Notes under the pieces: model-generated
The model's database searches: none
What the model was told of the DNA's origin: nothing
The model's input: the letters and a program-made list of their open reading frames with translations, nothing else
NCBI GenBank assembly: GCA_024401305.1
Contig: JAKSLI010000028.1
Span: forward strand, 1 to 40,191
DNA from: Bacteroidaceae bacterium
GTDB lineage: Bacteria; Bacteroidota; Bacteroidia; Bacteroidales; Bacteroidaceae
DNA length: 40,191 nt
Direction of reading: 5' to 3'
In this document: in pieces, positions 3,868 to 19,014 of the stretch
Layout of the letters: every line of letters begins with the position of its first letter
Position numbering within the stretch: position 1 is the stretch's first letter
Translations under genes and position numbers: made by a program

Positions 3868-3967
3868 AATAGCTACTGCAACATTTGCAACATTTGCAAC
3901 AACTGCAACATTTGCAACAAATAAACACGAATCCCGTACTCCACGCGAAATGGAATACGGGATTTTT
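3868..3967 (+). repeat. Nonamer-array repeat with stem-loop, copy 1
   Basis: AATAGCTACT is followed by five 9-bp units of the GCAACATTT type. A short linker (AACACG) leads to a stem with arms 3930-3943 and 3951-3964 (AATCCCGTACTCCA / TGGAATACGGGATT, one internal mismatch), ending in TTTTT. Placed just after GH127, it may act as its terminator. Copies 2 and 3 have the same architecture. Confidence 0.8.
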
Positions 3968-4278: not shown

Positions 4279-4776
4279 ATGCAAGGACTCTCATCTGAAC
4301 GCATCAACCAGACATCTCCGTACAAAGTAATTTCTGCGGGGGAAGGCGTTGTGCGCTTTATCACAGACAATGCTTTAGTCTATGAAGCAGGTTTTCTTGA
4401 AGATTATTCCATAGTTGAAGAAGACGGATTTCAATTCTACTTAAAGGAAATTTCAGGAAAGTCAGCTTCTGCTGATGTGAAAATCATGCAGACCATTTGG
4501 GCTGTCTTTGAGGAGTTTTTTGCACAAAACGAATCGGTAGTTCTTTATATCTGTGATGTTTCCGATGGTCATCAGGCAGCAAGAGCCCGTATTTTTGCTA
4601 AGTGGTTCCATACTTTTGAACACGAGGAACGATATACTTTTATTGATAGTAATATTACTTTTGAAGAAATCAGTTATTTTGCAGCAGCAATCATAGCAAA
4701 GTCCAATCCTCATCACGACGAATATCGAGATGCATTCATTGAATTTCAGAAAAGTATTGAGGATAAGTTAAGATGA
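4279..4776 (+). CDS. DUF6169-like protein (165 aa)
   Basis: The ATG start is four bases after the preceding stop. The protein resembles the Bacteroidetes DUF6169 family in length and overall pattern; this assignment is from memory. It opens with a short beta-rich N-terminus (PYKVISAGEGVVRFIT). The central part, ESVVLYICDVSDGHQAARARIFAKWF, has a conserved-looking D-x-x-D-G-H-Q-A-x-x-R core, and the C-terminus is helical. There is no signal peptide or membrane segment, so it should be cytoplasmic. The biochemical function is unknown. It converges on the minus-strand defence operon, with a repeat element between them. Confidence 0.6.
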   Translation: MQGLSSERINQTSPYKVISAGEGVVRFITDNALVYEAGFLEDYSIVEEDGFQFYLKEISGKSASADVKIMQTIWAVFEEFFAQNESVVLYICDVSDGHQAARARIFAKWFHTFEHEERYTFIDSNITFEEISYFAAAIIAKSNPHHDEYRDAFIEFQKSIEDKLR

Positions 4777-4829: not shown

Positions 4830-4919
4830 AATAGCTACTGCAACATTTGCAACAAACGCAACATTGCAACAAATAAAACACGAATCCCGTACTCCACACA
4901 AAATGGAATACGGGATTTG
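4830..4919 (+). repeat. Nonamer-array repeat with stem-loop, copy 2
   Basis: Same design as copy 1: AATAGCTACT, three GCAACA units with slightly irregular spacing, then stem arms 4883-4896 and 4904-4917 that repeat the copy 1 stem exactly, including its single mismatch. It lies between convergent genes (DUF6169 and the HerA-like gene), where it could end both transcripts. Confidence 0.8.
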
Positions 4920-4969: not shown

Positions 4970-6568
4970 TTATATCAGGTGCGTCACCTTTATCTTCTTC
5001 CAATGCTTGCCGATACCAAGTGCCATCGCCTGAGCATCCTTTGTTATCAGTTCCCCCTTCTGCAAACCAGTAATAGCTTGCTTCAGTTCTTGAAGTTGAC
5101 TGCCGTTCACACCAAACAAATCCTTCAGCACGCAGTCGTTCTGCTGCTGTTGGCGCATGATCAAAGGATATTGCGCATTGGCGTAGAAGTCAAAATGCTT
5201 TGACTTGAAGTCATCCATATTCTGACTGGCAAAGATGATGCTCATACCTTTGTTTCTTCCCACCTTTATGAGATTCTTCAAAGGCTGGTTCTCAAAGCCT
5301 AGCATATAGTGAGCCTCGTCTATAATCGTAAAATGTCGTAGTTCCACACGCTCATCGTTTACCTGCTGACTAGGAAGATTGTCGTAGATGTTGTTCAGTT
5401 TAGATATCACGAAATAGACAATAGCCTTCGCCATGATTCCGTCTTTTTCAAACTGTCCGAGATTGATGATGTTGCAAGTGTGAACCAAGTCTATCTTATC
5501 CTCCTCGCTGAAGATATTGTTTCTCACCAACTGGTTGAGCACAGACTTTACACTGTCCGTATCATCCTGCTTCTTTTCCGGCATGAGCAGAGTGTAGTTG
5601 TCAAGCACATCCTTGAATGTTATCGGCTTGAAATGCTTCTTCTTGTAAGCCTCAATGATAGCCTCGCTTAGTCGGTTGTCCATATTAGCACTAATCTTCG
5701 CTGGAGATATAGCGCTCAAGGCATTCGACATTGATGTGGCATATAGGTTCAACTCATTGATAGGCTTTCCTGTGAAGTCCTTGAAAGGCGTGAATGGCAG
5801 CGGCTTCTCCATCGGATTTAGCACAGCAGAACTGTCCGTCTCAAACAGTTGCAGCCAATGCGCATTTGCCGGATCAGAGAATTCACCCTTGTAGTCAAAC
5901 AGAAGGAAGTTCACAGGATAATGGGTATCGGCAGATGCAGAACGTAGTTGCTGAATAAGTACGGCAAGAAGGTTTGACTTGCCCGAGCCAGTCGTTCCAG
6001 CTACAAGCACCTGAGTGTTCGTTATAGCCTTTGAGTTCAGGTCAAGGCGTGCCTCCATCTCATCATCGTACATACCGATAAGCAACTCCAAAGCAGGAAT
6101 ATCCGAAGCCGATTTTCCACCACGAAGAGGCGAGAAGTGAAGCCATTCGTCCATTGTTCCCTCTTGCATCAGAAGGTCATGGCCACGCAGAATCTCCCTA
6201 CCCACAACCTTACTTGCGAAAGCCTTGTGTTTCCAGTCGCCATCAATGTCATGATAGCGCATCTTTATCAAGGACTCAAACAGTTGTCCTATCTGGTTCT
6301 TCGTATAGAAAGTCGTAGCATACGGAGTATTGGAAACCTTTAGCGGGAAATCAGAAAGGTCATCCACTCGGCGTGCAGACTTGTCGCTCAATCCCACAAG
6401 CAGGCAGAATCTCAACACCGTACTCATGGTAAGTGTAACAGGTCTCACCGAGTCCGAATATTCTTTCAGATTGATATGCTGTTCAAGCATGGTCTTAACG
6501 TCTTGTATTCTGTCGTTAAGACCTTCTATCGACACAGCTATGTTTATCTTGAAACTATCTACTTTCAT
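4970..6568 (-). CDS. DndE-like domain fused to a HerA/FtsK-type ATPase
   Basis: This 532-aa cytoplasmic protein is the last gene of the six-gene operon. Residues about 1-140 resemble DndE, with a hydrophobic LRFCLLVGLS helix (52-61) and a late RGHDLL motif (128-133). Residues about 145-510 are a HerA-family ATPase: Walker A GTTGSGKS (191-198), FDYKGEF (224-230), Walker B TIIDEAH (414-420) and a polar ASQN sensor (447-450). HerA-like ATPases form hexameric rings that move DNA; DndE binds DNA in phosphorothioate systems. The start lies seven bases after the upstream DndD-like stop. The ATPase call is secure; the DndE call rests on pattern only. DndE is usually a separate protein of roughly 110-130 aa, so the fusion is notable. 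It may couple DNA engagement to translocation. Confidence 0.8.
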   Translation of the reverse strand: MKVDSFKINIAVSIEGLNDRIQDVKTMLEQHINLKEYSDSVRPVTLTMSTVLRFCLLVGLSDKSARRVDDLSDFPLKVSNTPYATTFYTKNQIGQLFESLIKMRYHDIDGDWKHKAFASKVVGREILRGHDLLMQEGTMDEWLHFSPLRGGKSASDIPALELLIGMYDDEMEARLDLNSKAITNTQVLVAGTTGSGKSNLLAVLIQQLRSASADTHYPVNFLLFDYKGEFSDPANAHWLQLFETDSSAVLNPMEKPLPFTPFKDFTGKPINELNLYATSMSNALSAISPAKISANMDNRLSEAIIEAYKKKHFKPITFKDVLDNYTLLMPEKKQDDTDSVKSVLNQLVRNNIFSEEDKIDLVHTCNIINLGQFEKDGIMAKAIVYFVISKLNNIYDNLPSQQVNDERVELRHFTIIDEAHYMLGFENQPLKNLIKVGRNKGMSIIFASQNMDDFKSKHFDFYANAQYPLIMRQQQQNDCVLKDLFGVNGSQLQELKQAITGLQKGELITKDAQAMALGIGKHWKKIKVTHLI

Positions 6569-6575
6569 AATCCGT

Positions 6576-8588
6576 TCAATCCATTAATTGTTCGCCAAAA
6601 TAGTCTTCGCTCACCGTAGTGCATTGCTGCTCCTTGTCACGATGCAAGGTATAAGTTCTTGCCACATAAGCTTCCACTTTCTTGAAGTCACGCTCTGTCG
6701 TGATTTCCGTATCGGTGCTTAGCAGGATTGTCTGATGCGCAAGATCTGGGAAGTATTGTTCCAGAATCACTTCGCGGCTTTCCTTGTCGAGCACACCCAT
6801 CACAGTGTCTATCATTACCGGTGGGTCGTAGTCACCAAGTTCATAGAGCACCTTCAGCAGCACCTGCATTACCGTCTGCTTTGCTCCAGCATTCAGTTGG
6901 CTAAGGTAAATCTCATTGCCGTTTTTATGGTAAATCTTGAAAGAAATCTCATCAGCATTGCCAGCAGACAGCTCTACCCTACCGATATATCCAGCATAGA
7001 TTACGAGATTGATGTTCAGCTGGTCACGCATCATGCGCTCTATGCTTGCCTTCTTTGCTGCAAGAAGCTTTACTGAGAGCGACTTGAAGAAGTCAGGCAG
7101 TTTGCAGAGCATGTCATACTGAGGGTCAGGCACTTGCGGAATGTCGTAGTCGTAAGTGGCAATCTTCTTGCTCAGGGTTTCAATCTCCTTTGTCAGTTGG
7201 TCGATGGCAAACTTCAGTTCTTTCGTGTTCTTGTCGTTGCTTTCATACATTTCTATTATGCTGTAGTCTGCACCTAGCAGCGTCTGTCGGAACTCGTTCA
7301 GCTGCTTCCTTCTATGTGGAAGTTCGTCTATTTCCAAGTTCAAGCCTGTTCGCTTCTCATCCAGCATAACAAATGGATTCACATACGCAGCCTTCACAAG
7401 ATCGCCAAGCACCTTCACATCCGTATCGGAAAGGTTCGGATACTTGTCATCGCTCTTCTTGCCGTCGTTCTTGTGGGCAATAAGATAGCTCACAATAGCA
7501 GAAACATCAATGCGACCGATGCCGAAATGATGAGTCTTCAAATAATCCACAACATCATTCGTCACTCGCTCTATCTGACTGTTTGTTAGGTCATTGCTAT
7601 GCTCGGCGGCGATTCGGCTCTTTTCGTTCAGTATCAGTTCCACTTCTCCACGAACCATGTCGGCGAGCTTCGGAAAGAGAACTTTCGACTCCAGTTCTCG
7701 CGCTATGCCATCAGCCTCCTGCCTGTAGTCGGCTTCTTTCTTGTCAAAGTCCCTCAGGTTCTGCTCTATCTGACGAATCTTGTCGCGCATCACATCATCG
7801 TCATCCCTACCTTCCTTGGCACGGTTGTACATCTCCCTATGCTCATTGGCGTAGGCAAGAGCCTGGCTGTATTCCTCTTTCTTGCGTAAGAGTTCAGCTT
7901 CCTTCTCTGCTTTCTGTCGCTGAAGGTTCTCGTAGTCCTTGCGTTGCATTTCATTTTCCAGCTTTGCAGCCTTCTTCTCTGCAAGCAAAGCTTCTGACAT
8001 GGAGCGCAGACGACTGTATTTGTTGAAGCCCATCACGGAGTTTATGTTCTTCATGATGAGTTTGTTTATCTGCTCTTCCTTCACCAGTTCCGAAGTCTTC
8101 ATGGCATCGAATAGGAAGTAGTTGCTAAGTTCTCGTGGCAGGTTAGCCGCGATAATCTTGTTTACTATTTCCTCGTTCGTATTGCGTTGGGCAGCCGTAG
8201 AACCGCTGCCATAGATAAAGCGGTTGCCGTCCATGTTCAGTTCCACGCTTTCCCTCACGCTTCCGTCCATCAGCGTATATGATCTTTTCAGCTTGTATGG
8301 AGTAGTCTTTCCGAGCACAACGCCGGTAAAGGTCACTTCCAGAACGATGTTCTTTCGATCCATGCCTTCCTCGTTCTTCACTCCGGCATTGAATATCTCT
8401 TCAAACTGTCGCTTGTTCTTTATCTCCAACCCATAAAGAGCGCTGTAGATGGCATCAAAGAGCGTAGTTTTTCCGCATCCGTTGGCACCACCAATCAGTA
8501 TTATCGGACGGTCGTCAGTAACCTCAAGGTTCAGGTCAAGTTTCCTGTACGTCTTGTAGTTCTCTGCGTATATTCTTCTTATCTTCAT
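6576..8588 (-). CDS. DndD-like SMC/Rad50-type ATPase
   Basis: The protein has 670 aa. The N-terminal ATPase half has Walker A GGANGCGKTT (33-42), and long heptad-rich coiled coils occupy roughly 195-300 and 420-490. The C-terminal half carries the ABC-type signature LNAGAKQ (565-571), Walker B with IDTVMGVLD (593-601) and LLSTDTE (622-628). The arrangement DT-x-x-G-x-LD followed by REVILEQYFP and LLSTDTE is characteristic of DndD rather than RecF or SbcC. I see no CxxC zinc hook between the coils. In Dnd systems DndD is an ATPase of the DNA modification complex, but here no DndC sulfur-transfer partner is present, so it presumably serves the methyltransferase/nuclease genes. Its stop is seven bases before the next gene, and it starts five bases after the small gene. 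Confidence 0.85.
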   Translation of the reverse strand: MKIRRIYAENYKTYRKLDLNLEVTDDRPIILIGGANGCGKTTLFDAIYSALYGLEIKNKRQFEEIFNAGVKNEEGMDRKNIVLEVTFTGVVLGKTTPYKLKRSYTLMDGSVRESVELNMDGNRFIYGSGSTAAQRNTNEEIVNKIIAANLPRELSNYFLFDAMKTSELVKEEQINKLIMKNINSVMGFNKYSRLRSMSEALLAEKKAAKLENEMQRKDYENLQRQKAEKEAELLRKKEEYSQALAYANEHREMYNRAKEGRDDDDVMRDKIRQIEQNLRDFDKKEADYRQEADGIARELESKVLFPKLADMVRGEVELILNEKSRIAAEHSNDLTNSQIERVTNDVVDYLKTHHFGIGRIDVSAIVSYLIAHKNDGKKSDDKYPNLSDTDVKVLGDLVKAAYVNPFVMLDEKRTGLNLEIDELPHRRKQLNEFRQTLLGADYSIIEMYESNDKNTKELKFAIDQLTKEIETLSKKIATYDYDIPQVPDPQYDMLCKLPDFFKSLSVKLLAAKKASIERMMRDQLNINLVIYAGYIGRVELSAGNADEISFKIYHKNGNEIYLSQLNAGAKQTVMQVLLKVLYELGDYDPPVMIDTVMGVLDKESREVILEQYFPDLAHQTILLSTDTEITTERDFKKVEAYVARTYTLHRDKEQQCTTVSEDYFGEQLMD

Positions 8589-8593
8589 AGTAA

Positions 8594-8806
8594 TCAGATT
8601 TCCTTTAACGCTTTCTTCAGAATCCTCGCAAGCTTCTTGTCATCCACAAAGTTCTGGTTATTACGTTCCTCGTGGTAAGGCTTGAGGATGCTTTGCTTCA
8701 TCCATTCTGAATCTATGTCATTGTCTCTGCACGACTGCTCGATGAGAGCCATGTCTTCCTGCCTTACACCATAATGCAGGAAAGTGCTATCAACGCTTTT
8801 CTTCAT
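8594..8806 (-). CDS. DNA-modification-system-associated small protein (70 aa)
   Basis: The sequence opens MKKSVDSTFLHYGV and is helical and charged, ending in a basic helix (KKLARILKKALKEI). It resembles the short proteins annotated next to DndD homologues as DNA modification system-associated small proteins; this is recognition by pattern and position, not proof. It is locked into the operon: nine bases after the nuclease stop and five before the DndD-like start. Likely an adaptor or regulatory subunit; no catalytic residues are apparent. Confidence 0.65.
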   Translation of the reverse strand: MKKSVDSTFLHYGVRQEDMALIEQSCRDNDIDSEWMKQSILKPYHEERNNQNFVDDKKLARILKKALKEI

Positions 8807-8815
8807 ATTCTTGTT

Positions 8816-9766
8816 TTATATATTCCTCAAATCCAACACGCTCCAACCGTCGGTTGTTGCGGTGTCTTCTATAAGTCCGTTAGGATAATACCAGTTGTCG
8901 CCTTGCGCTATCAGCACACCGCCTACCATCTTCTTTCCCTTTGCACAATACTCCTCGCAATATTGGAAGAGGGCGTTGTTCTTCTCTGGTGCATCTTCGT
9001 CGCTGCCTGGAGTCTTTGTATCAAATAGGCAGATGGTTCCGTTTTTCAGTCGGATGATGAAGTCAACATAAAAGCAACGCTTCCTGCCTGTCATATCCGT
9101 ATAAGGTACGGCAAAATGCTGCTTGCCCTCGTCGCCATTCTTGTACCACCAATCTACTTCGTCCGTCCGTTGGTCAAGCCATCGGGCAAAGTTGTATTCT
9201 GGCGCAGATACATTGTTCTGTTCAAAGAAAGGCTGCAAGGCATGATTGAATATCTCGCCATCCCTCGCCTGACTCACTTGAGAGTTGTAGAGTCTTGTCT
9301 CGGGTACTTCCCAAACGCATTCTTTATATTCCGGTTCGGCTGGTTTCTGCTTTTGCAGCTGTCTTTCATACTCCAACAGAGCCTTTCGTATTAAAGACTC
9401 AAAGTGCGGCTTGTTGTCACGCTGCAATACAACCTTTGGCACATCCATTGAGAATATGCCGAGATAGTTTTCCATAACATGTTCCAAGGCACCCATGAGA
9501 ACTGGGGTACTATCAAATTTCGCAAACGATCCGCAATTGTCGCGACAGAACTTCGTGAACATATCCATAAGTTCCGAGCCGTTGCGTGCCAGTCTTGCCT
9601 TCTCCGTAACCTCCGTCGTTCCGTCAAACTTCGTGATTCGAGTGTCTTTCGGAATGTCAACCATGATTCGGGTTACATCGCATCTTACGCCATGCTTCTT
9701 TGCTTGCAGGCGGTTGTATTTTATCTTTTCGTCAAGTTGATCTGTCATCATATTCGCTATTGTCAA
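8816..9766 (-). CDS. Type III restriction Res subunit, separate PD-(D/E)XK nuclease protein
   Basis: This 316-aa protein carries the part usually found at the C-terminus of Res. Residues 1-150 are mostly helical. A PD-(D/E)XK core follows: E203-V-D-W-W, the metal-binding aspartate in CFYVDFII (D235), and FDTK with D249 and K251 on the next strand. The GGVLIAQGDNWY strand comes after it. Its ATG overlaps the end of the helicase gene by four bases, so the two are translationally coupled and probably form one complex. In classical type III enzymes the helicase and nuclease are one polypeptide of about 900-1000 aa; here the domains are divided between two genes, with no frameshift remnant. Expected role: DNA cleavage. 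Confidence 0.8.
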   Translation of the reverse strand: MTIANMMTDQLDEKIKYNRLQAKKHGVRCDVTRIMVDIPKDTRITKFDGTTEVTEKARLARNGSELMDMFTKFCRDNCGSFAKFDSTPVLMGALEHVMENYLGIFSMDVPKVVLQRDNKPHFESLIRKALLEYERQLQKQKPAEPEYKECVWEVPETRLYNSQVSQARDGEIFNHALQPFFEQNNVSAPEYNFARWLDQRTDEVDWWYKNGDEGKQHFAVPYTDMTGRKRCFYVDFIIRLKNGTICLFDTKTPGSDEDAPEKNNALFQYCEEYCAKGKKMVGGVLIAQGDNWYYPNGLIEDTATTDGWSVLDLRNI

Positions 9767-11190
9767 TCGTTACTTTCTTCTACCTCATCTTCATCCTTCT
9801 CAAACAAATCCTCTGTTGAGAACAGCCATAGCGGATTTTGTCCCCACTCTTGCTCCATGACTCTTGCCAATACGCTACGGAAAGTTGAGCCAAGACGGTT
9901 TCGCTTTGCACCGTTCTTGTCCATATAGACAGAGCGAAGCGTGATGTTCTGTAGTTCCTTGCGGCGGTTTGCGTAGATTGTTGAGAGATAGTTCATATCG
10001 TCGCCAACAATCTGGATGATGTCTGCCGAAAGGTTTGTATATACATAGCCGTAGTTCAGCAGGTCGTTCTGATAGAAACGTTGCTCCGGCATACGCAATA
10101 TTCTGCCTACTGTCTGCGTCGTGAAGGTCATGCTCTTAAGGTCGCGGAAGATCAGAAGCACGCTTGCTCGCGGACAGTCCCAGCCCAAAGCTATCGCTTG
10201 CTTGAAGAGAAGCACTTCGGTCATATCGTCAGGCTTGGTAATATCCTGAAGATTAGGCGACTTATCCTTTGAAAGCCAAACAGCCAACTTGCCGTTTTCC
10301 ACGCTGATGTTGCACCGTTGCTCAAGGAAAGACTTCATCTCGTCGGCAATGGTCTTGTCATTGGCGTTCATGGATTCCGAGCTGTCGTTAGGAAGCTGAA
10401 TGAGAAGCAGCGGATTTATACCGTGCTCCTTGTAAGCCTTTGCCAGTTCTTCACGCTTCTTCAAGGCTTGCTTCAGCAGACGCTGGTTAACGGTAAGTTC
10501 ACTCTGCTCCTTACTGCTGTGGATATTCGGATTGAGCTGTATGCCTCGCTTTATCATTTCCTCCTCAACAACATCCTTGCGCTTCACCACTACATTGTAG
10601 TAGCTCTGCGTAACGGGAGTTGCCGAGATGCGAATCTCCACTTTCGGCTGAATGGCATGCAACACCATCTCACTCTTCTTTGCATTCCTGCCACCGAACA
10701 TGTGCTCTTCGTCTATCACCACAACAACAGGCAGATGCTTCTCCACCTTTGTGCGACGGATAAGTTCGTAGAGTGTTCGGTTCTGTTCATTGTCGCGAAT
10801 CATCACGGCATTGTCCTTGTTTATCGACTCCCAGTTGAGGAAGAGCACGTCGCCTTTCTCCAGACCTTCCAAATGGTTGCACTCGTCGAACATCACAGGT
10901 CGCAGGGAGCGTTTCTCCGAAAAGAAGTTCTTCATCGATTTGTACGACTGCTGGTGCAGCTTGTTCGGAGCTATCCACACCCATGCCACCTGAGTGTATT
11001 TGCACTCGCCGTCCATAGGCAGCTCGTATGTCACTTCGTCAAGAAGCTTCGATGCCATGACAGTCTTGCCCGCGCCTGTCGGAGCTTTGAATATAAGCTT
11101 CAAACGGTCTTCGTCATCGTTGAGCAATGATACCAACTGACGCTTCAATTCCCTTACGGCACGCTTCTGGTAGTCTTTCAGTTCTATCAT
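9763..11190 (-). CDS. Type III restriction Res subunit, separate SF2 helicase/translocase protein
   Basis: The protein has 475 aa and a full set of SF2 motifs. DYQKRAV (6-12) is the Q-like motif, APTGAGKT (36-43) Walker A, and IDEEH (159-163) Walker B. SATP (189-192) is motif III. GWDCPRA (336-342) is a hallmark of type III Res proteins, and QTVGRILRMPE (359-369) is motif VI. It ends in an acidic tail (EKDEDEVEESND) just after the helicase core, where other Res proteins continue into the nuclease. It overlaps the mod stop by four bases upstream and the nuclease start by four bases downstream. Expected role: ATP-driven DNA translocation or switching that brings the nuclease to the cleavage site. 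Confidence 0.85.
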   Translation of the reverse strand: MIELKDYQKRAVRELKRQLVSLLNDDEDRLKLIFKAPTGAGKTVMASKLLDEVTYELPMDGECKYTQVAWVWIAPNKLHQQSYKSMKNFFSEKRSLRPVMFDECNHLEGLEKGDVLFLNWESINKDNAVMIRDNEQNRTLYELIRRTKVEKHLPVVVVIDEEHMFGGRNAKKSEMVLHAIQPKVEIRISATPVTQSYYNVVVKRKDVVEEEMIKRGIQLNPNIHSSKEQSELTVNQRLLKQALKKREELAKAYKEHGINPLLLIQLPNDSSESMNANDKTIADEMKSFLEQRCNISVENGKLAVWLSKDKSPNLQDITKPDDMTEVLLFKQAIALGWDCPRASVLLIFRDLKSMTFTTQTVGRILRMPEQRFYQNDLLNYGYVYTNLSADIIQIVGDDMNYLSTIYANRRKELQNITLRSVYMDKNGAKRNRLGSTFRSVLARVMEQEWGQNPLWLFSTEDLFEKDEDEVEESND

Positions 11191-13034
11191 TCTTCGCCTC
11201 CTTCCTCAATAGTAAAGTTGTCATCCTTCTGCGGTGGCAGAATGCTTCTGATGGCTTGGTTCAGGGCATCGGGCATGGCAATCAGTTCCACGCGGTCTTC
11301 CAATCCTTCAAACTCATCGTTGTAGGCGTATGCGCCATCGCTGTAAGCATAGATTATAAGTTTGCATTCTCGTGTTGCAAGCGTCGGATTCTCACGAAGT
11401 TCCTTGGCTATATATTCTATGGCTCTTGGCTCATATACCACGAGCATCTGCTTCTCTGCATTTGCAAAGTATATGGCATAGCGCGGCTTGAACTTCAAGC
11501 TACCGAATTGCTTCTCTTCATCATAAAGGTCGTGCTTAATGCAAAGCATATCCGTAGCCATCTGCATAAGCTTCTGACGGTTAGCAGAACAATTCTCACG
11601 CTCCGTAAACTCTACCTTATAGTAGCGAAGGTTATTATCTTTCAACCCTGCCACCTCAACACCTTTCGGAGTTGTATAGCCATTGATAACACGCTTGTTA
11701 CGCTCGTAGGTTACGTCCTCGCAGATATTATTCTCGTTGTTCGTGACAAGGATACATTTGCGATGACCACCGTCCTCTGCGTTCAATTGCATCGTGGCAT
11801 GGAGGGTTGTGCCTGAGCCTGCGAAGAAGTCGAGGATGAGATTACAATCTTTTATTATGTTTAATAATATTTTTATCAAACCTATTGGCTTCGGATTTGA
11901 GAACGGAGTATTATTCTCAAATATAGATTTCATTTCCAAATTACCTTGCTGATTAATCGGTTCAGTAATTAGATTAGAAAAGGCTCGTCCAGACTGTTCA
12001 CGAATATTACCTTCATTATCTACTTTTTGGTATACTTTATATTTTATTGTATACTGAGAACCTTTGCTCTTTTTTGATTTAACAAACTCAAGAAATTTGT
12101 TCTCTATTCCCCACTTAACTTTGTCTTGTCCCCATTTCCATATCCAACCGTCATTCACAAAAGTATTTCTACCATTTGGATAAATAATTCCGCCATCTGG
12201 AGCTACTATACCATAATTCATAGAATCAGAGTATTGAAGCCCACCACGATCTAAAGTGTCATAATAAAATTTTCCTCTTTCAGACTCATATTCATCAGAA
12301 AATTTGTATCGATTGTTATTTATCGATTCATCGTCTCTATTCCAAATTGATTTTTCTAACGTAATAAGCCTATTCTTTGAATAAAGCAATATACTCTCTG
12401 TAATGACAGCTATGTCTTTAGCATCATTAGCTCCAGTTTTCTTTCTCCAATCAAATTTTGAAACGAAATTATTCTCTCCAAACACCTCATCGCACAACAA
12501 CTTCAAGTTCGCTTGCTCATTGTCATCAATAGAAATAAAGATAACGCCACGGTCAGAGAGAAGTTTCTTTGCTATGCGCAGACGCTTCTCCATAAACGAC
12601 AGCCACTTGCTATGACGGTAGCCGTCTTCCGAATCAACGAAAGAGTCATTATATACAAAGTCCTTATTACCAGTATTGTACGGCGGGTCAATATAGATTA
12701 CGTCCACCTTGCCCTCATGAGTATAGGTCAAAGCTGTCAAGGCGTGAAGGTTATCGCCCTCAATGAGGATGTGGTTTGGGGTTTGTGTCGGCTCAGAAAT
12801 CTTCGCCCTACAATCGTCAGATGCAATAATAGCTTTGCTTTTATCTTCTACGAGTACTGGTATGTTTTCCGAAAGCACTTCCTGCGCTTCCTCCTTATGC
12901 TCTTCCCATACCAGCCCATAACGCTTTTGTTCATTAAGCAACTGAAGCAGGTCTGCTTTCTGTTCGTTGCTCAGTTCCTTCAAATCTCGTATAAGACTGG
13001 CAAGAGCGGCTTTGTCTATTTTCCTTCTTGCCAT
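11187..13034 (-). CDS. mod: Type III restriction-modification adenine methyltransferase (Mod)
   Basis: First gene of the operon, 615 aa. It is an N6-adenine methyltransferase of the beta class: the catalytic DPPY (116-119) precedes the AdoMet-binding FAGSGTT (404-410). The N-terminus is helical, and IEGDNLHAL (91-99) with KVDVIYIDPPYNTG is typical of type III Mod. Between the motifs, residues about 200-395 form the target-recognition domain. Its DNA (about 11840-12490) is much more AT-rich than the flanking coding sequence, as expected if this domain was exchanged by recombination. The C-terminal part (RKCILVTNNENNICEDVTYER) is conserved. Mod modifies one strand of the recognition site and supplies specificity to Res. 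No consensus promoter is evident directly upstream; it may be transcribed from the region to the right. Confidence 0.92.
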   Translation of the reverse strand: MARRKIDKAALASLIRDLKELSNEQKADLLQLLNEQKRYGLVWEEHKEEAQEVLSENIPVLVEDKSKAIIASDDCRAKISEPTQTPNHILIEGDNLHALTALTYTHEGKVDVIYIDPPYNTGNKDFVYNDSFVDSEDGYRHSKWLSFMEKRLRIAKKLLSDRGVIFISIDDNEQANLKLLCDEVFGENNFVSKFDWRKKTGANDAKDIAVITESILLYSKNRLITLEKSIWNRDDESINNNRYKFSDEYESERGKFYYDTLDRGGLQYSDSMNYGIVAPDGGIIYPNGRNTFVNDGWIWKWGQDKVKWGIENKFLEFVKSKKSKGSQYTIKYKVYQKVDNEGNIREQSGRAFSNLITEPINQQGNLEMKSIFENNTPFSNPKPIGLIKILLNIIKDCNLILDFFAGSGTTLHATMQLNAEDGGHRKCILVTNNENNICEDVTYERNKRVINGYTTPKGVEVAGLKDNNLRYYKVEFTERENCSANRQKLMQMATDMLCIKHDLYDEEKQFGSLKFKPRYAIYFANAEKQMLVVYEPRAIEYIAKELRENPTLATRECKLIIYAYSDGAYAYNDEFEGLEDRVELIAMPDALNQAIRSILPPQKDDNFTIEEGGEE

Positions 13035-13113
13035 AATGTGTTAGTTATTAGTTGCAGCACAAATGGTCTATCAACTAATAATTGCTGGCAAGCGCACTTA
13101 TGGACATAAAAGA

Positions 13114-13383
13114 AGGGTGTAAGCCTTCTTACGGTCGTCTGAGGTTGAAGCCTAGGAATGTTCTCTGACCTCCCGAATGAATAAGAAATGCCTACACCCC
13201 TTTCGGGATGCAAGGCATCTTCGTATCGTTATTCATTCGATTGGCTCATTCCATCGGTTCATACCTATACGCGGTAAAACCTCCTTTCATCGGGGAAAGA
13301 AGGGGGGTGTAAGCCAACCATCATCGTCTGTGGCGTGTATCAGAGAAAAATGTAAGTTTCCTAGGCTTCATTTTCTGACGACC
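13114..13383. repeat. Structured intergenic region with two converging inverted copies of a palindromic element
   Basis: This covers most of the 468-bp gap upstream of mod. Copy A (plus) has GGTCGTC (13133-13139) and TGAAGCCTAGGAA (13146-13158), then TCTCTGA and GCCTACACCCC (to 13200). Copy B (minus) has the same order: GGTCGTC (13383-13377), TGAAGCCTAGGAA (13370-13358), TCTCTGA and GGCTTACACCCC (to 13304). The six bases before the conserved loop differ, yet each copy can pair locally: GAGGT with ACCTC in A, CATTTTCTGA with TCAGAGAAAAATG in B. GGGTGTAAGCC recurs at 13114-13124, giving copy A near-perfect terminal inverted repeats. A hairpin with arms GAATGAATAA / TTATTCATTC lies between. Open frames across it look spurious. 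Confidence 0.7.
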
Positions 13384-13465
13384 ACAATGATAGTCTGATG
13401 CTGCTATATTTTTATTATGTTAGTTTTAAGTTATGTTTATTAGTTTGTTTTATTTGGTTTGGTTA
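13380..13465 (-). repeat. Leader repeat, copy 1
   Basis: An 86-bp block starting GACCACAATGATAGTC (plus strand), followed by a TGCTGCTATATTTTT segment and a T/G-rich tract ending TTTGGTTTGGTTA. It is near-identical to 14484-14571. The next minus-strand gene is mod, about 345 bp further on; in the other copies the gene starts within a few dozen bases. Confidence 0.75.
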
Positions 13466-13502: not shown

Positions 13503-13781
13503 TTAATCTTCGGCAACATATGCCGTTTCGTATTCCGTTTGAACAGGGTAGAGTCCGAGTTCTTTGATCAGCATGTCATATACATACGCAGGACTTTGGA
13601 CATAGAGTTCACCTTCCTCTATCTGCAGTAGTTCGAGGGTGTGGGATTGATAAACCAAATCCAATGACTTTTCTAGGGAATAGTCATAGTCCTCCATAAG
13701 ATACTTCACCATCTCGCTGATGACATGGTCAGTGAGGAAATTGGCAATCTGTGCGTGGGTGGGATTCAATTTATTTTCCAT
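13503..13781 (-). CDS. DUF3791-like protein, third gene of the DUF3990 cassette (92 aa)
   Basis: The sequence opens MENKLNPTHAQIANFLTDHV. The central VISEMVKYLMEDYDYSLEKSLDLVYQS and the following LYVQSPAYVYDMLIKELG form a helical pattern often found next to DUF3990 and DUF3791 proteins. No catalytic motif is visible. The start overlaps the end of the DUF3990 gene by 16 bases, so the two are coupled. Likely an immunity or antitoxin-type partner of the ADP-ribosyltransferase-like protein. The family name is tentative. Confidence 0.6.
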   Translation of the reverse strand: MENKLNPTHAQIANFLTDHVISEMVKYLMEDYDYSLEKSLDLVYQSHTLELLQIEEGELYVQSPAYVYDMLIKELGLYPVQTEYETAYVAED

Positions 13782-14260
13782 ACATGGGTTTTCTTTAGTA
13801 GTTCCAAAGCCTTCGGAGTTCCGAAGTAATATTGCTGATCCAGGTACTTGTCTTGCAAACGGCTTGCAGCCTCTTCTGGTGTAAGAATCTCATTTTTGTA
13901 GTTTGTTAATTGTACTACAACACCATCATCTGCTATTGGACCTGTGACTATATCGTACTGGTGAGGAGTGGCACCACTATGCCTGTCTCGGTTTCGGTCG
14001 ATGAACCTAATCCATTCGGCATTTGCTTTCTCGGGAAATTTCTTCATTTTGAGTTTTATTTCTTCTGCTTGTTCAGCATTAAACTCGTACTCAAGAATGA
14101 GTGGTTCCCCTCCGAACATTTTTGCTTTCTTTCGCGCCATTCGTTCTGCAGTCGCCTTATTGGGAGTAAGGTAAAAACCTTGGCCAAAATCCTTGAAGCG
14201 TTTACCAGCGGTTAGGTTAATTGTATCTATATCGTAGTTGGTTCCGTGATAAAGTTTCAT
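13766..14260 (-). CDS. DUF3990 protein, ADP-ribosyltransferase-like putative toxin (164 aa)
   Basis: The start is taken as the ATG at 14260, giving MKLYHGTN, because it overlaps the upstream stop as ATGA and follows GGAGGAG; an ATG at 14287 would run deep into the preceding gene. The sequence has the DUF3990 pattern: LYHGTNYDIDTINL, then GKRFKDFGQGFYLT (the H-G-T and G-x-G-F-Y-L-T strands of ART folds), a basic helix (ATAERMARKKAK), and HQYDIVTGPIADDGV. DUF3990 members are predicted mono-ADP-ribosyltransferases. With helical proteins coupled on both sides it looks like the toxin of a three-gene cassette. Target and NAD dependence are not known. Confidence 0.75.
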   Translation of the reverse strand: MKLYHGTNYDIDTINLTAGKRFKDFGQGFYLTPNKATAERMARKKAKMFGGEPLILEYEFNAEQAEEIKLKMKKFPEKANAEWIRFIDRNRDRHSGATPHQYDIVTGPIADDGVVVQLTNYKNEILTPEEAASRLQDKYLDQQYYFGTPKALELLKKTHVWKIN

Positions 14261-14472
14261 GCTAATACTCCTCCATTCTTTTTGCACATTATAATAAGAT
14301 CATCTACCGTCTCTTCAGGGTCTTGCAGGTGCTCCACATCATAATATTCAATGAGGAAATCCAAACCCTTATGTTGCCGCAAGTAGTTGTATGCTGCCTG
14401 CCTTGTCAAGGCAAACCGCTCTGCAAAGGAACGGACGATAAGATTTATGTATGGTATCTCGTATTTGCTCAT
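14257..14472 (-). CDS. DUF3791 family protein (71 aa)
   Basis: MSKYEIPYINLIVRSFAERF opens a small helical protein. The block FALTRQAAYNYLRQHKGLDFLIEYYDVEHLQ matches the DUF3791 pattern (a small-residue helix, then GL-x-FL-x-x-YY-x-x-xH), and it ends DDLIIMCKKNGGVLA. It overlaps the DUF3990 start by four bases (ATGA), with a strong GGAGGAG ribosome-binding site inside its last codons. DUF3791 proteins usually accompany DUF3990; a partner or antitoxin role is inferred from that. Confidence 0.72.
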   Translation of the reverse strand: MSKYEIPYINLIVRSFAERFALTRQAAYNYLRQHKGLDFLIEYYDVEHLQDPEETVDDLIIMCKKNGGVLA

Positions 14473-14483: not shown

Positions 14484-14571
14484 GACCACAATGATAGTCT
14501 GCACTGCTATATTTTTTTTATGTTTGTTTTAAGTTTCTGTTTTTTTAGTTTGTTTTTATTTGGTTTGGTTA
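14484..14571 (-). repeat. Leader repeat, copy 2
   Basis: Near-identical to 13380-13465. On the minus strand it ends with GACTATCATTGTGGTC only 11 bases before the DUF3791 ATG. Copy 3 (14895-14910) retains just the 16-bp motif. The motif is an imperfect dyad (GAC...GTC outer bases) and contains TATCATTG, one base off a Bacteroidetes -7 box. Confidence 0.75.
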
Positions 14572-14585
14572 TTTTACTCGTAAGC

Positions 14586-14813
14586 TTATCTTTTGAACTT
14601 TACGATGCAATCTATACAAATTGGCTTGTCCGTAAGTGACTCTACAAACACAATTGCTTGGGCTTGTTCCTTTGCTGCTTGAAGCATCGCCACTTGCGCT
14701 AAGGCTTTCTCGCGTGTAGTTACATACGATGAGCGCCCCAATGAGGAGCGGACCAGCCGAGCAGACTCCTGCATGCTCTGGTTGATTAAATTGAGGAAGG
14801 TCTCTTTTGCCAT
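14586..14813 (-). CDS. Small hypothetical protein (75 aa), first gene of the DUF3791/DUF3990 region
   Basis: MAKETFLNLINQSMQESARL leads into an alanine/glutamine-rich helix (EKALAQVAMLQAAKEQAQAI) and a C-terminal strand segment with two cysteines (DKPICIDCIVKFKR). I do not recognise the family. A competing frame begins upstream at 14856 (MNIEEISNNINDILNGKR) and runs to 14569. Its start context (AATCTTATAAAATGAACATT) resembles that of the YopX-like gene at 18535. The upstream frame could be a coupled leader peptide, or the gene may have suffered a frameshift near 14812. I favour the 75-aa frame on protein-like composition. Confidence 0.5.
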   Translation of the reverse strand: MAKETFLNLINQSMQESARLVRSSLGRSSYVTTREKALAQVAMLQAAKEQAQAIVFVESLTDKPICIDCIVKFKR

Positions 14814-14894
14814 TGAGTATGTCGTTTATATTATTACTAATCTCTTCAATGTTCATTTTATAAGATTATTTTGTGGCGATAGTAATCAATATGC

Positions 14895-15044: not shown

Positions 15045-15143
15045 AATAGCTACTGCAACATTTGCAACAACTGCAACATCTGCAACATTGCAACAAATTA
15101 ACACGAATCCCGTACTCCACACGAAATGGAATACGGGATTTGT
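15045..15143 (+). repeat. Nonamer-array repeat with stem-loop, copy 3
   Basis: AATAGCTACT is followed by four GCAACA-type 9-bp units and one shortened unit, then stem arms 15106-15119 and 15127-15140, identical in sequence to those of copies 1 and 2. It ends four bases from the 3' end of the DUF3987 gene. Confidence 0.8.
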
Positions 15144-15146
15144 TGG

Positions 15147-17723
15147 TTATGCTGACTGCTTTGGCGTCTCTGGATGCTGTAGGATGAGGACTGGATTCTT
15201 CTCGTAGTGGCCGCGGGAAACTTCCGTTATCATGCCGTAGGATTTCCATCTATTCACATGGCTTCGCAGCGTGTTTTCGTTGCATTTTTCGCCACGCTTC
15301 TGCGCTACTTCTCGCATGATGTCGTAGCCGAAGGTGTCTGGGAGTGCGTCGAAGAACTTGTTGTTTCGCGTCATGCGAACGCCTGACTCATAGATCTTTA
15401 GGGCACTGCGTTCAATGGATGCATTCAGTGCTCCTCCGAAAAGTCTCATCTGCTGGTCGAGACAGTAGTCGGCAAACCATTTCGCGAGAGCAATAGCCTC
15501 GTCGGTTTCCTTGTGACCTTCCAGAATGAAGAATATTACGCCTGCACGAAAGCCCATCACACCGGCACGTCGGCGGAATGTGTCGAGGGCATTGTTGCGC
15601 TCTTTCTGACATTCGTATGCCTTAAGGTTCTGCCAATCCGTCATCGCTTTCTGAAGTTGCGGAAGCGTGTAGGTTACCGTTGGCACCTTGTTGTCGTCAT
15701 CCACATAATGAAGTCGTCCGTCATCGCCTATGGTAGGCTTCTTGCTACGCTGGAACACACCTCCGCATGACTTTGCATAGTCCTCGCTCTCGCCTTCACG
15801 CATCAGCATGTCAACATCCTTCATGACAAGTTCGTACACCTCGGGACTGAAGTTGCCCATCGTCTCGACGCAGCGACCGTAGCTGTCAGGCAGTTGAGCG
15901 AAGCAGAAGCGGCTCACAAGACCACCTTCCACATTGTTCAGATAGCTGTACATGGCAGAAGGAGTGCCGGTCATCATCACATTGATGAACGCAGCGGCAT
16001 TGCTCTTATGGCTGTTTCCAGACATGTAATACTGACCAATGGAGTCGTTGTCGTACGCCTTTCGGAGAATGTCGTCCATCGATGACCACGCATTCTTGTT
16101 GCACTTCGCCATGGAGTCAATCTCCGGAGTAACCTGTATGAGATGCTGTCCGCGTGCATTGTCAAGAAGCAGTGAGAGCGATGTGTTTGAAGTCTTCTCC
16201 GGAATACAGCGAATGCATGCGTGAGGATCGTCCGGCTGAGTGTCGGAATTCTTCGAGCGCTTCAGTTCCTCTTCATACTTGCGCTGCTTCTCCATCTCGA
16301 TGAAGTCGTAGGCTTTCAGTGTACCAAGGAGCATGTCCACAAGACGCTTCACACCACTCTTACCACCAGCCTGTGGCGATGTCACGCATGAAAGGAATGT
16401 CATGGAATGAGGCACATTGTCGATGTAAGGAGAGCGTACGCGAGTGGCAAGAGTACCGAGTGCAGGCATCATGGCTACGAGTGCTGCTGGCTTATAGTCG
16501 TCAGGATATGCATCCAGAATACGGGCTATGCTTGCCGGCATCTTTGTTGGCAATGGATATTGCTCATCAACTTCCGTCTCAGCATCCATAAGTTGCTCAT
16601 TGCATACATACTCCTTCTCGAGTTCACTGAGCGCTTTTTGCAATTTACGAGGGAACGAACTCTTTCCGTGCTCGTAGTTCACATTGCTGTTGATAAGCGC
16701 CTGCACCTCGTGTTCAGGAAGTCCCCAGTCAGGAAGCACAGCCTTGATGAACTTTGCATCCAAGTCGCAGGCATGACGAAGCACAGGAAGAACAGCCTTC
16801 AATGCATTGTGACGATCGCCTACTACCGGACATCCGTTCACAAGCTTAAAGCCATCGTTCTCAAGCAGTTTGCAGATGATGTCATTGTAAGGAATGCCAC
16901 GGTAAGAAGTAGGGTAGGAGACCCCCTCTGGCTCCCCCACAGGGGGAGTATTGCCATCCGGAAGATTTAGCATAGGCTCTGCAACATCTGCAACATTTGC
17001 AACATCCGCAACGTTCTCTGCCACTGTTCCTGAATCGTCAGCTTCTTGCTCTTCTGAAACCTCTGAAACCTTTGAAACCTCTGAAACTTCCCTATTGAAC
17101 AACTGCTCGTCGTCGCGATAGAGGATGTAGTCGGCAGGCACGGCAAAGCTGCAACGAGCGAGGTCTTTCACGCAAGTGTCGAGCTTACCATTGCCAAGCA
17201 CATCCTTAGCGCCAATCTTGTCTGCAAACTGATACATGGCAGTTTCCACATTAAGATATGAAGGGCGCTTGAACACGATGCGCAGACCTTCGCCAGAAGG
17301 AGTGATGTGAGCAAGGATGCAACCGTTCTCCACAGCCTTCTCCTTAAGCTTATCCCATGCAGCAGTGGCATCTCCGATGTGGTCAAGGTCAAGGAAAGCA
17401 AGGTCAGTAGGAGTTGCATTCTCTGCCTTTCTGGCACCACCGTTGAAGCGAGCAAGGAAACAGAATGCAGGGAGTTTCTTCTTCAAGATAGCGACCTTGT
17501 CTTCCTTCTTAAAAGGAGAAAAGAACTGCTCCTTGATACCTACTTCCTCAAGCTCTTCAGAAGATACTTCACTTCCGTCAATAACTCTCTTTATCAAACG
17601 GCAGATGACGGCTGTTCTGCTGCTGTTGATAGCCTTGTTGAAGGACGACAGAGTGCAAGGCTCACTCTGCTTTGACGTACAGCTCTGCTGCATATCAAAG
17701 AGGTAATTAACGTTTTTTTCCAT
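15147..17723 (-). CDS. Primase-helicase-like protein with BT4734/VirE_N-type and DUF3987 domains (858 aa)
   Basis: The N-terminal domain (about 35-205) has FLDLDH (D112, D114), TPSGEGLRIVFK (141-152) and a late DLARCSF, the D-x-D plus S-G-x-G-L layout of archaeo-eukaryotic primase-like VirE_N/BT4734 domains. Residues 211-270 are a low-complexity linker made of DNA repeats (SEVSKVSEVSE, NVADVANVADVAE, then a palindromic insert). The C-terminal part (about 390-800) matches DUF3987 and holds a P-loop, SPQAGGKSGVK, with GGKS at 453-456. Such proteins are common in Bacteroidetes mobile elements and are thought to act in replication initiation. It is downstream of the YopX-like gene (50-base gap) and probably shares its promoter. 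No sign of truncation. Confidence 0.8.
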   Translation of the reverse strand: MEKNVNYLFDMQQSCTSKQSEPCTLSSFNKAINSSRTAVICRLIKRVIDGSEVSSEELEEVGIKEQFFSPFKKEDKVAILKKKLPAFCFLARFNGGARKAENATPTDLAFLDLDHIGDATAAWDKLKEKAVENGCILAHITPSGEGLRIVFKRPSYLNVETAMYQFADKIGAKDVLGNGKLDTCVKDLARCSFAVPADYILYRDDEQLFNREVSEVSKVSEVSEEQEADDSGTVAENVADVANVADVAEPMLNLPDGNTPPVGEPEGVSYPTSYRGIPYNDIICKLLENDGFKLVNGCPVVGDRHNALKAVLPVLRHACDLDAKFIKAVLPDWGLPEHEVQALINSNVNYEHGKSSFPRKLQKALSELEKEYVCNEQLMDAETEVDEQYPLPTKMPASIARILDAYPDDYKPAALVAMMPALGTLATRVRSPYIDNVPHSMTFLSCVTSPQAGGKSGVKRLVDMLLGTLKAYDFIEMEKQRKYEEELKRSKNSDTQPDDPHACIRCIPEKTSNTSLSLLLDNARGQHLIQVTPEIDSMAKCNKNAWSSMDDILRKAYDNDSIGQYYMSGNSHKSNAAAFINVMMTGTPSAMYSYLNNVEGGLVSRFCFAQLPDSYGRCVETMGNFSPEVYELVMKDVDMLMREGESEDYAKSCGGVFQRSKKPTIGDDGRLHYVDDDNKVPTVTYTLPQLQKAMTDWQNLKAYECQKERNNALDTFRRRAGVMGFRAGVIFFILEGHKETDEAIALAKWFADYCLDQQMRLFGGALNASIERSALKIYESGVRMTRNNKFFDALPDTFGYDIMREVAQKRGEKCNENTLRSHVNRWKSYGMITEVSRGHYEKNPVLILQHPETPKQSA
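16920..16948. repeat. GC-rich palindromic insert inside the DUF3987 gene
   Basis: GACCCCCTCT followed by GGCTCCCCCACAGGGGGAG, a 5-6 bp dyad (ACCCCC or CTCCCCC with GGGGGAG). It is about 90% identical to 24697-24724 in the unrelated D-lactate dehydrogenase gene. It is translated in frame within the linker (TPPVGEPEGV). Confidence 0.7.
16981..17013 (+). repeat. Nonamer array inside the DUF3987 coding sequence
   Basis: Four 9-bp units (GCAACATCT, GCAACATTT, GCAACATCC, GCAACGTTC) read in the plus direction. The minus-strand gene translates them as VADVANVADVA. The 9-bp period keeps the frame open. A second 9-bp array, CTCTGAAAC-type, sits just beside it (17057-17091). Confidence 0.75.
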
Positions 17724-18703: not shown

Positions 18704-18753
18704 GAAATTTCGTCTTTTTTTTTCAAGGAAAAATCATGTCGTGTCCGAAGTTT

Positions 18754-18786
18754 GTTGCAAATGTTGCAGATGTTGCAAATGTTGCA
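18754..18786 (-). repeat. Nonamer array, minus orientation
   Basis: Plus strand reads GTTGCAAAT, GTTGCAGAT, GTTGCAAAT, GTTGCAC, followed by CTATGTGAG. It has no stem-loop partner. It is in the non-coding stretch 18536-19029, upstream of the YopX promoter. Confidence 0.7.
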
Positions 18787-18901: not shown

Positions 18902-18979
18902 AGTTAGACTATAATTACTTGTGTACTTAATTACAATTACTATACACTATTTTCCTATTTCCAAATGCCAATAGGTACT

Positions 18980-19014
18980 GCAACATCTGCAACATTTGCA
19001 ACATCTGCAACATT
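18980..19014 (+). repeat. Nonamer array after the GH13 gene
   Basis: GCAACATCT, GCAACATTT, GCAACATCT, GCAACATT preceded by GGTACT and followed by CTATGTGA. It ends 16 bases beyond the 3' end of the minus-strand GH13 gene. Confidence 0.72.

What the first reader, a model, noticed from the sequence alone, without database searches (positions are those of the whole stretch)
4970..13034. Six-gene operon joining a type III methyltransferase and a split Res to DndD- and DndE/HerA-like proteins
Seen: six minus-strand genes with overlaps of 4 bases or gaps of 5-9 bases: Mod, SF2 helicase, PD-(D/E)XK nuclease, 70-aa protein, DndD-like ATPase, DndE-HerA fusion. Known: DndD and DndE normally work with DndA/B/C in phosphorothioate modification, and type III systems need only Mod and Res. 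Inference: the Dnd-type DNA-handling ATPases serve here a methylation-based restriction module, giving a hybrid defence system. It may relate to reported helicase-methylase-ATPase (Hma) candidates, so novelty must be checked. It lies beside an ART-type cassette and repeats, as in a defence island.
Basis: partly seen in the sequence, partly recalled or inferred. Interest (0 to 1): 0.88.

Follow-up and report, generated by a model that had tools for sequence, protein, structure and literature searches.

The report
Type III restriction joined to Dnd motors
A bacterium of the Bacteroidota carries a restriction-modification system that is joined to DNA-handling motors known from a different defence family, and this gene set recurs in the same order in many related bacteria, which swap mainly the part that chooses the DNA target.

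Summary
Of the 80 best relatives returned (of 184), 59 carry all six genes in the same order and strand; in 19 of the other 21 the first gene found starts within 680 bases of the locus end. The set is a type III-style Mod-Res pair followed by SP, a DndD-type ABC ATPase and a HerA ATPase with a DndE-like front end. The "split Res" is not the family norm: Res is one ORF in 64 of 65 other loci; the 65th, L086, is interrupted elsewhere. DndC and DndB were not found in the 80 loci; DndC passes its cut-off in 2 of 50 carrier genomes, not in the window's own. In 10 of 11 locus pairs whose helicase, DndD and HerA proteins are at least 90% identical, the Mod target region is under 35% identical: target choice sits in Mod and the motors look target-agnostic. 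It is not Hma. The DndD/DndE-HerA pair is in print; I found no description of its union with a type III pair, but one key 2020 paper is not held. New variant of a known kind.

The parts
11187..13034 (-). mod: type III-style DNA methyltransferase (615 aa), target-recognition region about residues 205-390
   Evidence: Pfam/PADLOC; DPPY in 61 of 61 and FAG[ST]G in 61 of 61 aligned Mods, window included
9763..11190 (-). res, helicase part (475 aa), SF2; a separate ORF in this window
   Evidence: ResIII 3.3e-17; in one ORF with the nuclease in 64 of 65 other loci
8816..9766 (-). res, nuclease part (316 aa, TTG start), PD-(D/E)XK-like by motif
   Evidence: YVDF...FDTK-type motif in 71 of 71, window included; no Pfam hit; fold not testable here
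8594..8806 (-). SP: 70-aa small protein, likely relative of Sp-DndD/PbeB
   Evidence: PF20306 E=0.0014, under its cut-off; aligned with the small proteins of L105 (PF20306 2e-10, over its cut-off) and L106, 13-14% identity
6576..8588 (-). DndD/PbeC-type ABC ATPase (670 aa)
   Evidence: PADLOC DndD 1.2e-67, PbeC 5.2e-59; TIGR03185 198 bits, under cut-off
4970..6568 (-). HerA/FtsK ATPase with DndE-like N-terminus (532 aa)
   Evidence: DUF87 4.9e-11; DndH C-terminal domain 9.7e-28; subfamily profile to PDB 7es4 DptH 1.2e-14; Walker A and B intact in 81 of 81, window included
4883..4917 (-). terminator-like hairpin 3' of the operon (15-pair stem, T-rich tail)
   Evidence: 11 sites found in the region, 6.8 +/- 2.3 expected by shuffling; this is the longest stem listed

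Best explanation
It is an ATP-dependent restriction-modification system of type III style whose Mod-Res enzyme has been stably joined to an SP-DndD-HerA motor block. Proposed action: Mod methylates host sites set by its target-recognition region and, as a Mod-Res complex, finds unmethylated copies on incoming DNA; the DndD coiled-coil ATPase with the DndE-like/HerA protein grips, scans or pumps that DNA without regard to sequence and brings it to the Res helicase-nuclease, or holds Res in check until a site is found; SP bridges or gates the ATPases. Shown: gene order, intact catalytic motifs, target region exchanged while the rest stays nearly fixed, two evolutionary blocks, no DndC or DndB in the loci. 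Inferred: defence function, methylated base (m6A likely, m4C not excluded), physical contact between blocks, pumping, role of SP.
For: Order and strand conserved in 59 of 80 loci. Mod target region: mean pairwise identity 0.17 against 0.73 for its catalytic part, 61 sequences; under 35% identical in 10 of 11 pairs with helicase, DndD and HerA protein all at least 90% identical, including window/L025 (0.21 against 0.98-0.99); conversely the window's target region is 77% identical to that of L093/L095, whose DndD is 40% identical. L075 has two full-length Mod ORFs before one Res. Pairwise identities correlate within {Mod C-terminus, helicase} (0.68) and within {SP, DndD, HerA protein} (0.67-0.76) but 0.31-0.39 between the blocks. 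Two-gene Mod-Res loci exist: 4 fetched, 3 with 7.7-8.7 kb of DNA 3' of Res and no SP, DndD or HerA match; the fourth (L133) ends 230 bases after Res. All 66 coupled Res rows lie on one side of a branch, support 100/97. Genes inserted at the block borders in some loci include, in the representatives tested, Abi_2, YhcG, RhuM, GmrSD, AAA+HNH and AlbA_2 proteins, as expected of a defence locus.
Against: No experiment; no structure. Defence role is by family and neighbours only. The blocks exchange partners (7 of 21 pairs with DndD at least 0.84 and HerA protein at least 0.90 identical have helicases under 0.60), which fits a loose or DNA-mediated link as well as a complex. HerA proteins of this subfamily also occur without the rest of the set (L109, L110). 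The DndD signature motif departs from the ABC consensus (LNAGAKQ, LNAASKQ and the like; consensus recalled), so ATPase cycling is not assured. Only four two-gene relatives were compared.
Confidence: 0.55

Rival explanations
1. Two defence units share one operon: an ordinary type III Mod-Res pair and a Pbe-like SP-DndD-HerA unit that acts as a back-up when phage proteins block Res, without taking part in Res cleavage.
For: The two blocks evolve and recombine separately; window against L025 DNA is 98.2% identical from the end of Res through SP-DndD-HerA and 92.6% over the end of Mod and Res; two-gene pairs exist; SP-DndD-DndE-HerA also exists with a different partner, a 734-aa protein with a helicase-associated domain (L105).
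Against: Among the 80 loci I saw none that keeps SP-DndD-HerA with upstream sequence available but no Res; the 66 coupled Res rows lie on one side of a branch; no nuclease domain was recognised in the block's three proteins.
Confidence: 0.25
2. The SP-DndD-HerA block is needed for modification, scanning DNA for Mod as DndD and DndE do in PT systems, with Res working alone.
For: DndD and DndE belong to the modification module of PT systems (PMC10853773, sections read), and distant relatives occur with DndC in L016, L107, L108.
Against: Two-gene Mod-Res relatives lack the block; the block does not change when the Mod target region changes.
Confidence: 0.12
3. In this window the system is decaying: the Res ORF break makes a dead enzyme, leaving an orphan Mod with motors.
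For: One continuous Res ORF in 64 of 65 other loci, and L086, whose Res is interrupted inside the nuclease, shows that Res can be lost. The assembly is a 115-contig draft, so an assembly error is also possible.
Against: The break lies in the acidic linker between the domains, the two ORFs overlap by 4 bases, and the motifs checked remain in both; CglI is a working enzyme made of separate helicase and nuclease proteins (PMC5737866, abstract).
Confidence: 0.2

Closest known systems
Type III restriction-modification (EcoP15I kind)
   Same: Mod with DPPY before FAGSG motifs and a variable region between; Res with SF2 helicase and PD-(D/E)XK-like nuclease; adjacent mod-res genes
   Different: Res is compact (median 782 aa over 66 sequences) and only weakly matched by PADLOC REase_III models (58 bits); three further conserved genes follow
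PbeABCD / CxC ABC ATPase-DndE systems (PMC10853773)
   Same: SP, DndD/PbeC-type ATPase and DndE-like protein next to an SF2 helicase-nuclease, sometimes with a methylase
   Different: Nuclease is PD-(D/E)XK-like rather than HKD; methylase is type III-style rather than cytosine-5 or permuted N4 cytosine; the DndE-like part is joined to HerA. A CxC/CxxC pair in DndD residues 201-480 was seen in 1 of 79, but also in none of five comparators, so that test had no positive control
DndC-DndD-(DndE-HerA) phosphorothioate loci (L016, L107, L108 here; HerA 'clade-3' of PMC10853773)
   Same: DndD with a HerA protein that has an N-terminal DndE region
   Different: Those have DndC (L016 and L107 also DndB) and a PF08870-positive DndE; these were not found here
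Hma / DUF499 BREX-related systems
   Same: Helicase, methylase and ATPase genes together
   Different: Hma has a DUF499 ATPase and an m5C methylase; no DUF499 or C5-methylase match here
m4C type III systems with an extra helicase-like ATPase (PMC8259958, passages)
   Same: Type III pair with an added conserved ATPase gene
   Different: The extra gene there is one SF2-like ATPase 5' of mod, not an ABC ATPase plus HerA 3' of res
CglI (PMC5737866, abstract)
   Same: Helicase and nuclease as two proteins, like the divided Res of this window
   Different: The abstract mentions only these two subunits, no DndD or HerA

Membership tests
Type III restriction-modification | Beta-class Mod with motif IV before motif I and a target region between them | tested here: met
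   DPPY at residue 116 and FAGSG region at 402; 61 of 61 Mods; variable region between
Type III restriction-modification | Res with SF2 helicase and PD-(D/E)XK nuclease in one subunit | tested here: inconclusive
   One ORF in 64 of 65 other loci, two ORFs in the window; nuclease by motif only
Type III restriction-modification | Cleavage needing two head-to-head unmethylated sites (feature recalled) | not testable with these tools
   Needs biochemistry
Dnd phosphorothioate modification (DndABCDE) | DndC (and DndA/DndB) with DndD and DndE | tested here: not met
   No DndC or DndB match in 80 loci at E 1e-3; DndC not in own genome, 86% complete; over cut-off in 2 of 50 carrier genomes, on other contigs, with 3 more weak matches. 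DndA not searched
DndE family | PF08870 domain (two RHH units) | tested here: inconclusive
   No PF08870 in window, at most 2 of 38 subfamily members (not among the 25 families listed), none in own genome. Full-length profile aligns colinearly with PF08870-positive DndE-HerA, probability 99.8, from residue 51 on. N-terminus alone: score below 6 of 8 shuffled or reversed controls; E=0.04 in a second try without controls
PbeABCD | PbeA = HKD nuclease fused to SF2 helicase | tested here: not met
   No PLD/HKD Pfam hit among the six and no PbeA hit for helicase or nuclease (full lists for these two)
PbeABCD | PbeB-like SP and PbeC-like ABC ATPase | tested here: inconclusive
   PbeC 5.2e-59, though DndD scores higher; SP only by PF20306 E=0.0014 below cut-off plus a 13-14% identity alignment
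Hma | DUF499 ATPase (HmaC) and m5C methylase (HmaB) | tested here: not met
   Neither in the Pfam lists of the six; definition
MADS | Co-occurring mad1-mad8 genes (definition recalled) | tested here: not met
   Only superfamily-level hits in the lists shown: mad8 to HerA 63 bits, mad2 to Mod 23 bits
BREX | PglZ and BrxC/PglY (definition recalled) | tested here: not met
   No such hit in the lists; the lists for Mod (25 of 30) and DndD (25 of 74) were capped

The most novel reading that the evidence does not exclude
SP-DndD-DndE/HerA is a portable, target-agnostic DNA-capture chassis that can serve different chemistries of self-marking: sulphur modification in some loci, type III-style methylation here. 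Because Mod target regions turn over almost completely while the chassis stays 90-99% identical, the chassis is unlikely to read the methylation motif, so in these systems DndD and HerA would work on DNA in general (capture, loop or pump) and hand it to Res. That would make them a motor-assisted class of type III enzyme, possibly freed from the rule that two head-to-head sites are needed.
Probability: 0.45. Interest if true: 0.75.

Novelty: new variant of a known kind. Interest (0 to 1): 0.62.

Why it matters
What DndD and HerA-type motors add in Dnd-like immunity is unsettled, because in PT systems modification, recognition and restriction are hard to separate (my reading of PMC10853773). Here the same kind of motors sits on an enzyme whose logic is understood (type III Mod-Res), and natural variants already provide the control: the specificity region is exchanged, the motors are not. 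It offers a clean system in which to ask what the motors do, and gives annotators a rule for recognising a conserved gene set that PADLOC models hit only piecemeal.

Tried and rejected
Hma membership: rejected on components. Canonical Dnd membership: rejected for this subfamily. Independent proof of DndE in the N-terminus by profile comparison: the first attempt scored below 6 of 8 shuffled or reversed controls; the second gave E=0.04 and was run without controls. CxC zinc hook in DndD: seen in 1 of 79, but none of the five comparators had one, so the test says little. 'Pbe-like' for L105/L106 is my label: PADLOC gave no PbeA hit for L105's 734-aa protein. Plasmid spread: 191 records matched, none over 80% of the query; the 15 rows listed are TraC at about 24%. 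Phage spread: 3 records; one unannotated, 'UNVERIFIED' faecal 'Bacteriophage sp.' record (MT835906) holds all six genes in order; I suspect a bacterial contig but did not test it. Rfam at gathering thresholds: nothing in the window. PDB profile search for the nuclease: one chance-level ferritin hit; for the helicase: only weak hits to spliceosomal helicases. tRNA scan: none.

Rows left out of counts: of 184 relatives only the best 80 were returned. Of these, 21 lack at least one gene: in 19 the first gene found starts within 680 bases of the locus end; L036 shows no Mod in the 1.6 kb held before its helicase (the contig goes on beyond the locus); L086 has its Res ORF interrupted inside the nuclease. 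The pair statistics used 61 sequences (60 loci and the window), the tree 66 coupled rows (65 loci and the window). DndC was searched in 50 of the 80 carrier genomes and in G000. Inserted genes: one representative per cluster, 10 proteins, went to Pfam; L026's had no hit.
Full report
OBSERVATION. A 15-pair hairpin with a T-rich tail follows the last gene. Mod is a type III methyltransferase by PADLOC (1.6e-105) and N6_N4_Mtase by Pfam; the helicase carries ResIII; the ATPase is DndD/PbeC-like; the last protein matches DUF87/HerA and the C-terminal HerA domain of DndH, and its subfamily profile matches PDB chain 7es4, DptH (1.2e-14). The 70-aa protein matches Sp-DndD (PF20306) at E=0.0014, below its cut-off, and was aligned, at 13-14% identity, with the small proteins of L105 and L106, of which L105's passes that cut-off.

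CONSERVATION. A scan of genome contigs with a five-member alignment of the HerA protein gave 184 relatives, of which the best 80 were returned. By my reading of the record titles 77 of 80 are Bacteroidota; L100 is labelled Ignavibacteriales, L079 Alphaproteobacteria (a MAG; I did not test for mis-binning) and L097 has no assignment. All six genes lie in the same order and strand in 59 of 80. In 19 of the other 21 the first gene found begins within 680 bases of the locus end; L036 and L086 are the exceptions. The set is uncommon: in a sample of 395 genomes of the phylum, 7 had a HerA match at E 1e-10, and only the own genome, G334 and G342 had one over 50% identical; G334 and G342 show no DndD, Mod or Res match in the 19 kb fetched around it. 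Among 60 relatives (own genome included) 9 had a DndD match, 4 of them at least 43% identical.

RES IS NORMALLY FUSED. Of 65 other loci with a helicase ORF, 64 have helicase and nuclease in one ORF; in the 65th, L086, the ORF is interrupted inside the nuclease region. L015 and L134, outside that set, also have one ORF. Median length over 66 sequences is 782 aa. Only the window is divided at the acidic linker, with a 4-base overlap of the two ORFs. Whether this is a working fission, decay or an assembly error cannot be told from the sequence. CglI shows that separate helicase and nuclease subunits can work (PMC5737866, abstract).

CATALYTIC RESIDUES. Counts include the window. DPPY and FAG[ST]G are kept in 61 of 61 Mods; HerA Walker A and Walker B in 81 of 81; helicase DE[EA]H in 66 of 66; the nuclease D...D-x-K motif in 71 of 71 with small variations around it; DndD Walker A in 76 of 76 sequences that cover it, with a signature (LNAGAKQ, LNAASKQ and the like) that departs from the ABC consensus as I recall it. 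DPPY alone does not prove m6A: m4C type III Mods also have it (PMC8259958, passages).

SPECIFICITY MOVES, CHASSIS STAYS. Mod residues 205-390 average 0.17 pairwise identity over 61 sequences, its catalytic part 0.73. Of 1,830 pairs, 11 have helicase, DndD and HerA protein all at least 90% identical; in 10 the target region is under 35% identical, and the eleventh is a pair of near copies (L093/L095). Window and L025 are the clearest case: helicase, DndD and HerA protein 0.98-0.99, SP 0.96, Mod C-terminus 0.95, target region 0.21. In reverse, 18 of 25 pairs with target regions at least 60% identical have DndD under 60%. Pairs share members and are not independent. L075 carries two full-length Mod ORFs before one Res, L061 one full-length and one broken copy.

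TWO BLOCKS. Spearman correlations of pairwise identity are 0.68 between Mod C-terminus and helicase, 0.67-0.76 among SP, DndD and HerA protein, and 0.31-0.39 across. In 7 of 21 pairs with DndD at least 0.84 and HerA protein at least 0.90 identical, helicases are under 0.60, e.g. window/L026. Window against L025 DNA is 98.2% identical from the end of Res through SP-DndD-HerA, 92.6% over the end of Mod and Res, 91.7% over the start of Mod, with no match in the target region. So Mod-Res units seem to be exchanged on an SP-DndD-HerA unit. Relatedness inflates such correlations; I take the contrast, not the values.

ORIGIN. Res homologues at E at most 1e-20 were found in 5 of 395 phylum genomes, own included. 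The four others are adjacent Mod-Res pairs (4-base overlap in three, 2-base gap in L131). Three have 7.7-8.7 kb of DNA 3' of Res without SP, DndD or HerA match; L133's contig ends 230 bases after Res and cannot tell. All four genomes bear handles first issued in the sample, which reported no HerA match for them. In a tree of 70 helicases the 66 coupled ones lie on one side of a branch (100/97; in all of 200 bootstrap trees). The program warned of long branches, coupled loci were chosen through HerA, and only four two-gene rows were used, so this agrees with one origin but does not prove it.

NOT A PT SYSTEM BY ITS LOCI. tblastn with three DndC and one DndB found nothing in the 80 loci at E 1e-3, while finding their kin in the control loci; DndA was not searched. 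DndC (TIGR03183) matched at E 0.001 in 5 of 50 carrier genomes and passed its cut-off in 2 (those of L025 and L080), both on contigs other than the operon's as judged by position against contig length; none in the own genome, which is 86% complete. More distant DndE-HerA proteins do sit in PT loci (L016 and L107: DndC, DndD, DndE-HerA, DndB or a DndB-like match; L108: DndC, DndD, two genes, DndE-HerA) and in loci with SP and DndD but no DndC (L105, L106; which I call Pbe-like, though PADLOC found no PbeA there). All five of those carry PF08870; the window does not, and at most 2 of 38 of its subfamily can. Profile alignment over the full length puts the window's N-terminus on theirs colinearly (probability 99.8), but the N-terminus alone is not significant. 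I therefore write 'DndE-like'.

ACCESSORY GENES. In 18 of 59 complete loci there is a gap over 200 bases between Mod and Res (in L061 it is the broken second Mod), and in 9 of 59 between Res and SP. Genes found at these borders, there and in the incomplete loci L036 and L086, include by one representative each Abi_2, YhcG nuclease, RhuM, GmrSD, an AAA+HNH pair, a SocA/MqsA-like protein and an AlbA_2 protein; L026's had no Pfam hit. This fits the exchange picture and a defence role.

LITERATURE. PMC10853773 (abstract, sections 13, 14, 16, 17, 22 and passages; [quoted passage not shown] The phrase 'type III' occurs once in its main text and 'Bacteroid' not at all. PMC12839542 (passages) places Hma among DUF499 BREX-related systems. 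Searches (searches showed 20 of 49 and 10 of 18 papers; one search found none) listed no paper that, by title and start of abstract, describes the present set. The 2020 survey of ABC ATPases on which PMC10853773 leans is recalled to be doi 10.1093/nar/gkaa726; it is not held, and supplements could not be read, so prior mention there is possible.

MECHANISM. What is shown is a type III-style enzyme with exchangeable targets that, in this clade, comes with one kind of DNA motor block. What follows by inference is that the block acts on DNA without sequence choice. The most likely use is to capture or move DNA for Res; the main rival is a back-up unit that shares the operon.

Noticed in passing
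window 13503-14472: DUF3791 + DUF3990 (ART-like) + small protein cassette, all three matching PADLOC's candidate PDC-M13; found in only 1 of the 80 other loci, L025.
   Followed up: partly
window 14569-14856: Short overlapping ORFs that match pieces of longer sequence in L044 and L038; may be a remnant gene.
   Followed up: no
window 4279-4776: DUF6169 gene on the opposite strand just 3' of the operon; relatives lie antisense between Mod and Res in L027 and L038.
   Followed up: partly
window 3877-3919, 15053-15095, 16978-17012, 18753-18786, 18978-19015, 22715-22752: Several short tandem arrays of a 9-base unit like TGCAACATT, scattered over the window; the one at 16978 lies inside the ORF 15147-17723.
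   Followed up: no
window 27978-31917: Phage-type integrase and an AAA_25 ATPase, with a BT4734-like protein at 15147-17723: possible signs of mobile elements near the operon.
   Followed up: no
L109 9767-11497, L110 7718-9427: HerA proteins about 50% identical to the window's, with no DndD, Mod or Res match in the 19 kb fetched; a lineage that may use the protein alone.
   Followed up: partly
L075 1592-5425, L061 1761-5360: Tandem Mod copies before one Res; both full length in L075, second broken in L061.
   Followed up: partly
L134 (MT835906, human faeces): A record labelled 'Bacteriophage sp.', unverified and unannotated, holds all six genes in order, with Res as one ORF.
   Followed up: partly
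L086 5281-7572: Res ORF interrupted inside the nuclease region, in a complete Flavobacterium chromosome; described only.
   Followed up: partly
window 13100-13390: Upstream region with two similar stretches (each with GGCTTACACCC and CTTCTTT) before Mod (by eye); no Rfam match at gathering thresholds.
   Followed up: no
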